Source: an uncultured Massilia sp. | Lineage (GTDB): Bacteria; Pseudomonadota; Gammaproteobacteria; Burkholderiales; Burkholderiaceae | DNA: 64,000 nucleotides | Reading direction: 5' to 3' | Assembly (NCBI GenBank): GCA_946481275.1 | Contig: CAMLMV010000026.1 | Coordinates: forward strand, 1 to 64,000 | In this document: in pieces, positions 55,240 through 62,964 of the stretch | Position numbering within the stretch: the stretch's first letter is position 1 | Layout of the letters: each line of letters begins with the position of its first letter | Notes under the pieces: generated by a model | What the model was told of the DNA's origin: nothing | What the model saw: only the letters and a program-made list of their open reading frames with translations | Databases searched by the model: none | Program-made: the position numbers and the translations under genes

Positions 55240-56880
55240 ATGAAACACTTCAGTATCAAGCACGTGATCACGTGCACTGTCGCCGTCCTGTGCGGCGTGA
55301 CCCTGGCTGTCGGCGCGCTCGGCTATTACGCGACCCAGCGCGCCATCGGACTTCTGGAAGGCGTGTCGTTGCGCGACGCCCACCAGCAAGACCTGATCGG
55401 CAATCTCATGCTGCGCATGGAAACCAACCGCAGCCAGTTGCTGCAGGCGCTGCAGCACAATCCGGCGACGGACTACGCCAAGATGCACGACCACCCGCTC
55501 GACGTGCACTACAAGAACATCGCCGACAATTCGCGTGCGCTGGAAAAGGTGCGCGCCGAGTTCGACGCGCTGTTGGACACGCAGGAAAAGAAGGAACTCG
55601 TGCGCAAATGGTATGAGCAGAGCAGCGGCCTGGGCGTCGAGTACGTGAACGCCGCGTCCAAGGCCATCGCGGCCGGGGACTGGGACGAGGCCGAGCGCAT
55701 CCTGATCAAGCAGGTCAACCCGACGTATAAAAAGGCGCAGCCGGCCTACGACGAACTGCAGGCATTCCTCGGCAAGCGCAGCCGCGCGAACGCGGAACTG
55801 GCGCATGCCGACAGCGAGCGGCTCGTGCTGTGGATGGTCCTCGCCGTCGCGGCGGGGGCGCTGGCGGGCGTGGGGGCCGCGGTCTACCTCGTGCGCGCCA
55901 TCGGCCGGCCGCTGGAGGAAGCCGTCGCCATCGCGCGGCGCGTGGCGCAAGGCGACCTGAGCGTCGCCATTCACACCGCGTCGGGCAACGAGTTCGGCCA
56001 GCTGCTCTCCGCCCTGGACGACATGAACCGGGGCCTCGCGCGCATTGTCGGCGAAGTCCGTGCCGGCACCGAGGCGATCGCGGAGGCGTCGACCCAGATC
56101 AGCGCCGGCAACAGGGATCTGTCGTCGCGCACGGAGCAGCAGGCTGGCACGCTGGAAGAAACGGCAGCCTCCGTCGAAGAGCTGAGTTCCACCGTCCGCC
56201 AGAACGCCGAGAACGCGCAACAGGCGAACGCCCTTGCAGCGTCGGCGTCGCACGTGGCGGTCAAGGGCGGCACCGTGGTGGCCGACGTGGTCCAGACGAT
56301 GGGCGCGATCAATGCGTCGGCCCGCAAGATCGTCGACATCATCACCGTCATCGACGGCATTGCCTTCCAGACCAACATCCTCGCGCTGAATGCCGCCGTT
56401 GAAGCGGCCCGCGCGGGCGAGCAGGGCCGCGGCTTCGCGGTCGTCGCGGGCGAGGTGCGCAACCTGGCGCAGCGCTCGGCGGCGGCGGCGAAAGAGATCA
56501 AGGAACTGATTACCGATTCCGTGGAGAAGGTCGAGAGCGGCAGCCGCCTCGTCGACCAGGCCGGCGCCACGATGCAGGAAGTCGTGGACGGCATCCACCG
56601 CGTGGCCGACATCATGAGCGAGATCACGGCAGCGAGCCAGGAGCAGCGCACCGGCATCGAGCAGATCCATCACGCGATCGTCCAGATGGACGAGGTGACG
56701 CAGCAGAATGCGGCCATGGTCGAGGAGGCGGCCGGCGCGTCGGGCGCGCTGCACGAGCGCGCGGAAAGTCTCTCGGACCTCGTGAGCGTGTTCCGGCTGC
56801 AGCACGGGCCGGCGCAGGGTTCGCGGGCGCCGGGCGCGCGTTCGCAGCCACCGCGTGCGACGGCGCGGCTTGCGGCCTAG
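55240..56880 (+). CDS. Methyl-accepting chemotaxis protein
   Basis: 546 aa. TM1 (about 9-28), a four-helix-bundle ligand domain (about 35-185), TM2 (about 192-214, LWMVLAVAAGALAGVGAAVYLV in part), HAMP (about 215-265) and the signalling hairpin with EAARAGEQGRGFAVVAGEVR at its tip (in part: ALNAAVEAARAG). No C-terminal CheR-binding pentapeptide is present. It should sense a periplasmic ligand and signal via CheA/CheW. The 150-base AT-rich gap upstream presumably holds its promoter. Its stop overlaps that of the convergent membrane-AraC gene. Confidence 0.93.
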   Translation: MKHFSIKHVITCTVAVLCGVTLAVGALGYYATQRAIGLLEGVSLRDAHQQDLIGNLMLRMETNRSQLLQALQHNPATDYAKMHDHPLDVHYKNIADNSRALEKVRAEFDALLDTQEKKELVRKWYEQSSGLGVEYVNAASKAIAAGDWDEAERILIKQVNPTYKKAQPAYDELQAFLGKRSRANAELAHADSERLVLWMVLAVAAGALAGVGAAVYLVRAIGRPLEEAVAIARRVAQGDLSVAIHTASGNEFGQLLSALDDMNRGLARIVGEVRAGTEAIAEASTQISAGNRDLSSRTEQQAGTLEETAASVEELSSTVRQNAENAQQANALAASASHVAVKGGTVVADVVQTMGAINASARKIVDIITVIDGIAFQTNILALNAAVEAARAGEQGRGFAVVAGEVRNLAQRSAAAAKEIKELITDSVEKVESGSRLVDQAGATMQEVVDGIHRVADIMSEITAASQEQRTGIEQIHHAIVQMDEVTQQNAAMVEEAAGASGALHERAESLSDLVSVFRLQHGPAQGSRAPGARSQPPRATARLAA

Positions 56881-58022
56881 CGGGCTGCGTGGCTGCGGAA
56901 TGCCCCGGGCGTGCAGCCGTACTCTTCCTTGAACAGCTTGTTGAAATACGAGACGTTGGCATAACCGACCGCGAATGCGATGTCCGCGATGGGCATGCCG
57001 GCGTGGTCGGTCAGCAGCCGCGCCGCTTCCGTCAGGCGCAACTGATTCACGTAGGCCGTGAAGGTCATGCCGAGCTCCGTCTTCAGGATCTCGTTGATCT
57101 TTTCGCGGTCCGCGCCGATCCGCGCGGTCACGCTCGCCATGTCCAGTTCGGGGTCCGTGTAGCGGGTGCCGATGTAGTGCAGGACGGCGGCCTTTTCCTT
57201 GTCCTTGAACGGCTCCAGCGTCAATTGCCGATATGCGAAGAACTGCCTGTCGGTTCTCAGTTGCGCGTCCAGGCTGGCGAAGAGCGCCCGGGAGTGTCCC
57301 CGCAAGAACCAGTCGGCGAACGCGCCCCAGCCGATCACCAAGACGACCGCCAGCGCGACGATGTAGCGCTCATCGCGTCCGTGCAGCGTGAATTCGCTGA
57401 TCTCGACGCGGGAATCCGTGTCGCGCGGGCTCTTCTGGCTGATGCCGAACATGAACCTCGCAACCCGTCCCAGGTCGTAGGATTGGCGCGACGGGTCGAC
57501 CTTCGACGTCTGGAACCACCATGGCGGAATCGTGAGGCGGGTCAGGTCCAGCGACACCGGCGTTCCGCTCTCGCTGCAGGAGAAGTAGGTGTGCGGCGAC
57601 GGATAGGTATGAAACATGCCCGGCGTCGAGATGGCCGGGTCGAAGGTGGACAGACCGAACAGCAGGGAATTGGCGGGCGCGCACCTGGCGACGAACGTGA
57701 CGGTGGTGTACGCCGACAGATCCGCCTGCCCCTGTCCATCCTCCAGCAGCATTTCCGCCGCCACAAAGGGATAGCTCGCGGCGGGCGTGACCCTGAAATC
57801 GAAACGCAGCGACTGCCGGCCCGATTCGAGGATGCGGATGGTCGACGTCCCGCCCAGGATGGCGTCCGTGACGACGTTCGGCCGCCAGTGCACGCCGCCC
57901 CGTTCCGTGGGAATGAGCGACGCGGACGGATGGCTTTGGCGGATGCAGAACCAGGCGAGCAGCGCATCGGCTGCCAGGACGAGGATGAGCGCAACCAGTG
58001 CTTTTTTGTAGAACTCTTGCAT
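56877..58022 (-). CDS. Membrane-tethered AraC-type regulator with periplasmic sensor domain (paralog 1)
   Basis: 381 aa. TM1 (about 7-26) leads to an extracytoplasmic domain (about 30-215) rich in beta strands (SLRFDFRV, DLSAYTTVTFVARC, TPVSLDLTRLTIPPWW) resembling CIA30/CBM-like jelly rolls. TM2 is about 218-238 (YIVALAVVLVIGWGAFADWF). The cytoplasmic C-terminus is an AraC double HTH (SVTARIGADREKINEILKTE; PIADIAFAVGYANVSYFNKLF in part). The topology suggests a one-component regulator that senses outside and binds DNA while tethered. It lies 46 bases after the deacetylase gene on the same strand. A close paralog is at 61831. The ligand, perhaps a carbohydrate, is unknown. Confidence 0.82.
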   Translation of the reverse strand: MQEFYKKALVALILVLAADALLAWFCIRQSHPSASLIPTERGGVHWRPNVVTDAILGGTSTIRILESGRQSLRFDFRVTPAASYPFVAAEMLLEDGQGQADLSAYTTVTFVARCAPANSLLFGLSTFDPAISTPGMFHTYPSPHTYFSCSESGTPVSLDLTRLTIPPWWFQTSKVDPSRQSYDLGRVARFMFGISQKSPRDTDSRVEISEFTLHGRDERYIVALAVVLVIGWGAFADWFLRGHSRALFASLDAQLRTDRQFFAYRQLTLEPFKDKEKAAVLHYIGTRYTDPELDMASVTARIGADREKINEILKTELGMTFTAYVNQLRLTEAARLLTDHAGMPIADIAFAVGYANVSYFNKLFKEEYGCTPGAFRSHAAR

Positions 58023-61830: not shown

Positions 61831-62964
61831 TTAGTGGTCGGCAGACGTTTCCAGCCTGCTCGCCAGCTTCCTGAAGTCCCTGGGCGAGCAACCGTACTCT
61901 TCCTTGAACAGCTTGTTGAAATACGAACTATTGGCATAGCCGACCGAATACGCGATCTCCGCCACGGTCGCATCGGCCTGGTCGGTCAGCAACCTGGCCG
62001 CTTCGGTCAACCTCAGTTTCTTCAGATACCCGGTGAATGTCATGCCGAGTTCCGTTGTCAGCACGTCATTGATTTTGCTACGGCTTGTGTCCGTGCCTGC
62101 GGCGACAGCGTCCAGGTCCAGTCCGGCTTGCGCGTAATGGGTGGCGACGAAGCGCAGGATGGCGGCCTGTTCCTGGTCCTCGAACCCGTCGACGGTCAAC
62201 TGGCGGTATGCCACGAACGACAGGTCCTTCTTGAGGCGGGATGCCACCTTCGCGCCGAGGGCGCGGGACTGCGCCCGGAAGAATCCGATGCCGAAGGCGC
62301 ACCAACCGATAATCAGGATTACGGCCAGTGCGACGAGGTAGCGGTCGTCGCGGCCATGCAGCGCGAGATCGCTGATTTCGACATGCGCATCGACGTCGCG
62401 CGGGCTGTACTGGCTCCCGCCGAATTCCAGTTTCACGACACGGTCCAGCGTGTAGGATCGGCGCGCAAGGTCGACATGTTCGTTGTCGTACCACCACTCC
62501 GGAATGGACAGGCGCGTGAGATCCAGCGAGACCGGCATGCCCTTTTCGTTGCATGAAAAGAAAGTCATGGCGGGCTTTGCGACACCTTCGTCGAGTACGG
62601 TGATGTTGAGGATCAGTGAATTGGCCGGGGTGCATTTTGCGAGGAAGGTGACGGTCGAGTACGCGGACAGATCCGCGGCGCCATCGAACTGCAACGCCGC
62701 CCACGCCCAGGGATGCGGGATGGCCTCCGAGAGCCTGAAGTCGAAGCGGAGCGATTGCCGGGTGGCGTCCCGGATGCGCACCGTCGACGCGCCGCCGTAG
62801 GGGGCGTCCGTGATGGCGGCCGCATGCCAGCGCGGCGCCGTCCGATCCCGCGGCACGAGCGACGCAGATGGTTGGCTGCGATGGATGCAGAAACCCGCGA
62901 TCAGCGCATCGGCGGCGAGAAGTAGAACGAACGCGCCGAGCGCCTTCCTGTAGAAGTGCTGCAT
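61831..62964 (-). CDS. Membrane-tethered AraC-type regulator with periplasmic sensor domain (paralog 2)
   Basis: 377 aa with the same layout as the protein at 56877: TM1 (about 7-27), beta-rich outer domain (SLRFDFRLSEA, DLSAYSTVTFLAKCTPANSL, VSLDLTRLSIPEWW), TM2 (about 214-232, YLVALAVILIIGWCAFGIGF) and C-terminal AraC HTH pair ending in YANSSYFNKLFKEEYGC. The two are clearly duplicates that have diverged mostly in the outer domain, so they may sense different ligands. It starts one base after the stop of the cupin-AraC gene, so the two regulators share a transcript. Targets unknown. Confidence 0.82.
   Translation of the reverse strand: MQHFYRKALGAFVLLLAADALIAGFCIHRSQPSASLVPRDRTAPRWHAAAITDAPYGGASTVRIRDATRQSLRFDFRLSEAIPHPWAWAALQFDGAADLSAYSTVTFLAKCTPANSLILNITVLDEGVAKPAMTFFSCNEKGMPVSLDLTRLSIPEWWYDNEHVDLARRSYTLDRVVKLEFGGSQYSPRDVDAHVEISDLALHGRDDRYLVALAVILIIGWCAFGIGFFRAQSRALGAKVASRLKKDLSFVAYRQLTVDGFEDQEQAAILRFVATHYAQAGLDLDAVAAGTDTSRSKINDVLTTELGMTFTGYLKKLRLTEAARLLTDQADATVAEIAYSVGYANSSYFNKLFKEEYGCSPRDFRKLASRLETSADH

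What the first reader, a model, noticed from the sequence alone, without database searches (positions are those of the whole stretch)
56877..62964. Two paralogous membrane-bound AraC regulators with extracytoplasmic beta domains
Both proteins have TM, a beta-rich outer domain of about 185 residues, TM, then an AraC HTH. AraC proteins are usually soluble; one-piece transmembrane AraC regulators are little described, whereas OmpR-type ones (ToxR, CadC) are known. The HTH ends are much more alike than the outer domains, suggesting duplication with a change of signal. One lies with a polysaccharide deacetylase lipoprotein, the other with a cupin-AraC regulator. They may be direct polysaccharide sensors acting from membrane to DNA.
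Basis: partly seen in the sequence, partly recalled or inferred. Interest (0 to 1): 0.7.

Follow-up and report, generated by a model that had tools for sequence, protein, structure and literature searches.

The report
Paired membrane-bound AraC carbohydrate-sensing regulators
Two related bacterial gene switches appear to sit in the inner membrane, each with an outer part predicted to be shaped like a sugar-binding module and an inner part that binds DNA; they flank a polysaccharide-modifying enzyme gene that they probably control, and they belong to a kind first noticed in 2008 but, as far as I could find, never tested.

The parts
56877..58022 (-). Regulator A, 381 aa
   Evidence: ORF; HTH_18; family of multi-copy paralogues
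57942..57998 (-). A, TM1 (residues 9-27)
   Evidence: Kyte-Doolittle 2.64; helix 2-30 in model
57369..57941 (-). A, outer CBM11/CIA30-like domain (residues 28-218)
   Evidence: AlphaFold pLDDT 87.9; Foldseek and VIA
57306..57362 (-). A, TM2 (residues 221-239)
   Evidence: Kyte-Doolittle 2.11; helix 218-257 in model
56892..57125 (-). A, AraC HTH (residues 300-377)
   Evidence: HTH_18 E 1.6e-23
61831..62964 (-). Regulator B, 377 aa, sister paralogue of A
   Evidence: ORF; HTH_18; tree
62884..62940 (-). B, TM1 (residues 9-27)
   Evidence: Kyte-Doolittle 2.37
62344..62883 (-). B, outer domain (residues 28-207)
   Evidence: aligned in A2 with A's domain; not modelled alone
62281..62337 (-). B, TM2 (residues 210-228)
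   Evidence: Kyte-Doolittle 2.59
61867..62103 (-). B, AraC HTH (residues 288-366)
   Evidence: HTH_18 E 2.7e-22
58069..59499 (-). Polysaccharide deacetylase lipoprotein, the probable target gene
   Evidence: Polysacc_deac_1 E 1.9e-7; lipobox-like LSGC and the strings TFDD, HTTHH, YPFGD found by script, read as NodB motifs from memory
59542..59611 (-). Conserved block upstream of the deacetylase, candidate operator/promoter
   Evidence: alignment of 7 loci; position; a 33-bp pattern from it hits 5 of 62 genomes, each time between the two paralogues
62966..63757 (-). Cupin-AraC regulator next to B; not a constant part of the module
   Evidence: AraC_binding plus HTH_18; present in 3 of 6 related loci
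60094..61814 (.). 1,721-bp stretch of 53.6% GC between B and the deacetylase side, absent from the nearest relative
   Evidence: blastn against L018; GC

Best explanation
A and B are one-component transmembrane transcription regulators. Two TM helices hold a CBM11-like beta-sandwich in the periplasm. A carbohydrate, most likely an oligosaccharide from an imported or envelope polysaccharide, binds the outer domain and changes the geometry of a dimer; the change passes along the continuous TM2-cytoplasmic helix to the AraC domains, which bind the conserved block upstream of the deacetylase gene and switch it on. The two paralogues arose by an old local duplication and probably read related but different ligands. 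Supported by computation here: architecture, predicted fold, family, sister paralogy, conserved gene order, conserved upstream block. Inferred: periplasmic placement, disulphide, ligand class, dimer signalling, identity of the block as operator, activation rather than repression.
Against: No ligand, binding or expression data. A shared fold shows no function, and CIA30 proteins of the same fold are assembly factors (recalled), not sugar binders. Charges beside the TMs do not decide orientation. The matrix that links the deacetylase block to elements elsewhere scores no better than shuffles (22 of 60 reach it). The invariant R and WW also occur in the divergent copies on other outputs, so they look structural rather than ligand-specific. 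pTM of the full-length model is only 0.58. The 75-bp-class motif seen before many family genes is absent before A and B.
Confidence: 0.55

Rival explanations
1. The outer domain binds another protein (for example a periplasmic binding protein, a TonB receptor segment or the deacetylase lipoprotein itself) rather than sugar, so that carbohydrate status is read indirectly.
Against: Other top folds are mostly carbohydrate-binding modules (CBM30, CBM29, CBM4, CBM22); no single partner gene is constant across the family.
Confidence: 0.2
2. A and B work as an obligate or antagonistic pair: a heterodimer, or B damping A.
For: Found together in the window and 6 of 6 related loci; the B stem is longer (0.36 against 0.20); B lacks 11 residues of A in two gaps of the outer domain.
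Against: B keeps the invariant outer residues and a full HTH. Only 8 of 76 loci have another full-length member within five called genes, six of these being this module, so most members act without a close partner.
Confidence: 0.15
3. The pair senses the cell's own envelope polymer (peptidoglycan or exopolysaccharide) and the deacetylase modifies it, rather than serving nutrition.
For: The deacetylase looks like a lipoprotein with no glycoside hydrolase beside it in the window.
Against: The rest of the family sits in degradation loci; TonB-receptor-like genes precede B in L021 and L023 by sequence start only (not Pfam-scanned).
Confidence: 0.2

Closest known systems
Membrane-bound AraC regulators of Saccharophagus degradans 2-40 (Sde_0324, Sde_3613; PMC2386152, passages and section 9 read)
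   Same: Two TM regions, AraC HTH, next to polysaccharidase genes; polysaccharide sensing already proposed. G605, whose contig has the published genome length, carries outer-domain matches at about 403 kb beside a GH5 gene and about 4.58 Mb beside a GH43/GH10 gene.
   Different: Here: a duplicated pair around one deacetylase, a fold for the outer domain, and a candidate operator. Equating G605 with S. degradans and its genes with Sde_0324/3613 is inference.
ToxR/CadC-type transmembrane regulators (PMC10269533, passages only)
   Same: One-piece membrane sensor and DNA-binding protein.
   Different: Those use an OmpR-type winged helix (recalled), usually N-terminal with one TM; here an AraC HTH at the C-terminus and two TMs. 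That paper's main text has no mention of AraC.
Hybrid two-component systems of Bacteroides (PMC10766802, passages only)
   Same: Outer glycan sensor and AraC-family output in one chain.
   Different: A and B have no kinase or receiver domain.
CBM11 and CIA30/NDUFAF1 folds
   Same: Same fold by Foldseek and VIA.
   Different: About 10-14% identity; no Pfam or PDB sequence match.
Anti-sigma factor RsgI with CBM-type outer domains (recalled; only a reference title seen)
   Same: CBM-like outer domain controlling transcription across the membrane.
   Different: RsgI acts through a sigma factor; here the sensor carries its own DNA-binding domain.

Membership tests
S. degradans-type two-TM AraC regulators | Two TM regions with a C-terminal AraC HTH | tested here: met
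S. degradans-type two-TM AraC regulators | Homologous outer domain in the S. degradans proteins | tested here: met
   HMM A2 hits G605 at E 1.2e-67 and 4.5e-51; G605 taken as S. degradans from its contig length, 5,057,531
S. degradans-type two-TM AraC regulators | Adjacent gene for carbohydrate modification or degradation | tested here: met
   polysaccharide deacetylase
S. degradans-type two-TM AraC regulators | Detects extracellular polysaccharide (hypothesis in the paper) | not testable with these tools
   needs binding and reporter assays
AraC/XylS family | AraC DNA-binding domain above the Pfam cut-off | tested here: met
   HTH_18 83.2 and 79.3 bits against 33.6
ToxR/CadC transmembrane regulators | OmpR-type winged-helix domain | tested here: not met
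   only AraC-type (and weak other) HTH models match A and B
Hybrid two-component systems | Histidine kinase and receiver domains in the chain | tested here: not met
   absent in A and B
CBM11 | CBM11 fold | tested here: met
CBM11 | Recognisable CBM11 sequence | tested here: not met
   no Pfam match to the outer part at E<=1; no PDB match with profile A2 at E<=5
CBM11 | Binding of beta-glucan | not testable with these tools
   needs purified protein

The most novel reading that the evidence does not exclude
The outer domain is an unnamed periplasmic sensor family with a carbohydrate-binding-module fold that evolution has joined to at least four outputs: AraC transcription, LytTR transcription, cyclic-di-GMP synthesis and hybrid histidine kinases. 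In polysaccharide degraders of at least two proteobacterial lineages it is a general periplasmic sugar receptor, and the A/B pair is a two-input version that reads a deacetylase's substrate and product.
Probability: 0.35. Interest if true: 0.7.

Novelty: new member of a known kind. Interest (0 to 1): 0.5.

Why it matters
How Gram-negative degraders outside Bacteroides sense polymers too large for the cytoplasm is, as far as my searches show, poorly worked out. A CBM-fold sensor fused straight to an AraC domain would be a very short route from glycan to promoter. The conserved block, the adjacent target gene and the paired sensors make the idea testable with reporters, and the outer-domain alignment would let others find such sensors and guess substrates from neighbouring enzymes.

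Tried and rejected
PDB sequence search with the outer-domain profile: no hit at E<=5. Pattern CTAACAC-N14-TTCAACT in 62 genomes: no hit; I had counted the spacer one base short (15 in L066), so it says nothing. Matrix scan: its best hit in the window is on the deacetylase upstream block, a region holding about 0.0008 of all positions, but 22 of 60 shuffled windows reach that score, so the operator claim rests on conservation alone (I had also picked out the block by eye before the scan). Three shuffles had looked more favourable; the 60 replace them. CTGTTATGATG at 41-77 bp before many family genes, always in the sense direction, looks like a promoter -10; absent before A and B; not pursued. 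Of 68 downstream intergenic regions, 12 hold an exact CTTCAACT, 56 do not. Literature for a tested member: nine searches; listings showed no experiment on this family, but the library lacks most subscription journals and I opened three papers only. Search for Sde_0324/Sde_3613 by name: 0 papers (the 2008 table prints bare numbers). Ideas rejected: ToxR-like winged helix and hybrid two-component system; cupin-AraC as constant partner; fresh duplication, since the A and B clades each span Massilia, Telluria and Duganella.

Full report
What is there. The window's own assembly is not held. Two minus-strand genes encode A (381 aa) and B (377 aa). Each has two hydrophobic segments and a C-terminal AraC HTH well above the Pfam cut-off; the part between the segments matches no Pfam model at E<=1. 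A cytoplasmic HTH and two TM segments put the middle part outside; charges beside the segments do not decide it. Two cysteines, an arginine and a WW pair are invariant in 68 of 68 aligned outer domains. A disulphide is inferred, not shown.

Family. A protein search with residues 1-245 found 328 relatives, 120 listed. A profile of ten gamma-proteobacterial members found 1,868 at E<=1e-3 among 7,999 scored, 120 listed; that count may include plain AraC proteins. The genome scan found 151 relatives, of which 77 loci were kept, mostly Oxalobacteraceae with Cellvibrio, Marinimicrobium and Glaciecola. By outer-domain HMM: 19 of 62 genomes in the genus of G001, up to 13 matches in one genome, divergent copies included; 4 of 145 in the wider family at E<=1e-8, of which two (G008, G066) hold only the divergent type; 1 of 369 in the class, G001 itself; 41 of 100 in the family of the Cellvibrio mixtus genome. 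G001 holds eight full-length AraC-type members. The family is patchy and multi-copy.

Other outputs. Weaker hits carry the domain on other signalling proteins. Pfam confirms HisKA-HATPase-receiver (L095, L096), GGDEF (L097, L099) and LytTR (L098), and GGDEF in L146 of G605. Of 22 further copies from nine genomes, not Pfam-scanned, 18 end like the kinases, three like the cyclases, and one (L132) has a frame that stops inside the kinase part. Profile comparison of these 27 divergent domains with the 68 AraC-type ones gives 98.8% probability, E 4.9e-17, over 158 columns, with the R and WW positions in register. I did not model the divergent type.

Neighbours. Genes were called by my own script. 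For 38 family genes under 75% identical to each other, 69 immediate neighbours of at least 100 aa were scanned. Among the 25 of 76 families shown: XylR-type regulators 10, GH42 7, GH5 7, GH39 6, GH3 6, TonB receptors 3, melibiase 2, GH43 2, BD-FAE 2. If no protein is counted twice, 30 of 69 are glycoside hydrolases of these families. Control: 69 of 140 sampled genes from 20 stretches of G001; the 25 of 110 families shown include GH43 1 and tannase/feruloyl esterase 1. Both lists are cut, so both counts are lower bounds; the control is one genome while the neighbours come from many.

The module. In six related loci (L018-L023: Massilia, Telluria, Duganella) the order is B, deacetylase, A in one direction, as in the window; the deacetylases fall in one blastp cluster, with Pfam confirmation in the window and L022. 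A small glyoxalase-like gene lies between in the window and L018. The cupin-AraC gene is present in three of six. A and B form clades with 100/100 support each and join with 97/81, so the duplication predates these sampled lineages, barring transfer. In the window a 1,721-bp stretch of 53.6% GC (window 66.4%) is absent from L018.

Candidate operator. Aligning 230 bp upstream of seven deacetylase genes shows a conserved block of about 70 bp between poorly conserved flanks (window 59542-59611). A 33-bp pattern from it, one mismatch allowed, hits 5 of 62 genomes once each, always between two family members, with no hit for the reversed control; several of these genomes are those of the aligned loci, so this shows specificity more than fresh conservation. 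In gamma-proteobacterial loci CTTCAACT occurs twice, 21 bp apart, just after the regulator and mostly before a GH5-like gene (exact in L069, L076, L087; one mismatch in L086, L091). The exact repeat is found in 4 of 100 genomes, each time 0.5-0.6 kb past an outer domain of the family, against one hit of the reversed control; G151 is L069's own genome and G645 probably L076's, so two are independent. AraC half-sites 21 bp apart are known (recalled). A matrix from such elements ranks the window's block first in 64 kb, but 22 of 60 shuffles score as high, so this link is only suggestive.

Prior art. The 2008 S. degradans genome paper (section 9 read) says 16 of 31 AraC-type regulators are membrane-bound, 13 of the 16 being paralogues; lists Sde_0324 (2 TM, beside a cellulase) and Sde_3613 (2 TM, beside a beta-1,4-xylanase); and proposes that they detect extracellular polysaccharides. 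G605 has the published genome length, and its family members lie near 403 kb beside a GH5 gene and near 4.58 Mb beside a GH43/GH10 gene. The kind is therefore in print. My nine searches found no test of it. Fold assignment, shared outputs, the duplicated deacetylase module and the upstream block I did not see in print in those searches.

Mechanism. Most likely a periplasmic oligosaccharide binds the CBM-like domain, changes the dimer and, through TM2, the AraC domains, which switch on the deacetylase. Architecture, fold, module and block rest on computation; ligand, dimerisation, operator identity and activation are inference.

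Noticed in passing
window 60094-61814: A 1,721-bp, 53.6% GC stretch absent from M. kyonggiensis, with small ORFs without convincing Pfam matches; one short 5% match to a Massilia plasmid. No target duplication was evident by eye.
   Followed up: partly
upstream of family genes, e.g. L031, L040, L057: CTGTTATGATG in the sense direction at a near-constant 41-77 bp before the ATG of many family genes, likely a shared -10 region.
   Followed up: partly
L024-L030: Seven orthologous family genes lie 135-350 bp from a contig end in seven different assemblies, which hints at a repeat just upstream that breaks assembly.
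   Followed up: no
L095, L096, L124-L142: The divergent outer domain is frequent on hybrid histidine kinases in Massilia, sometimes as neighbouring pairs (L134, L137, L138).
   Followed up: partly
L035:9500-10702 and others: XylR-type regulators (PBP1_XylR plus AraC HTH) are 10 of 69 immediate neighbours, suggesting paired periplasmic and cytoplasmic sugar sensing.
   Followed up: no
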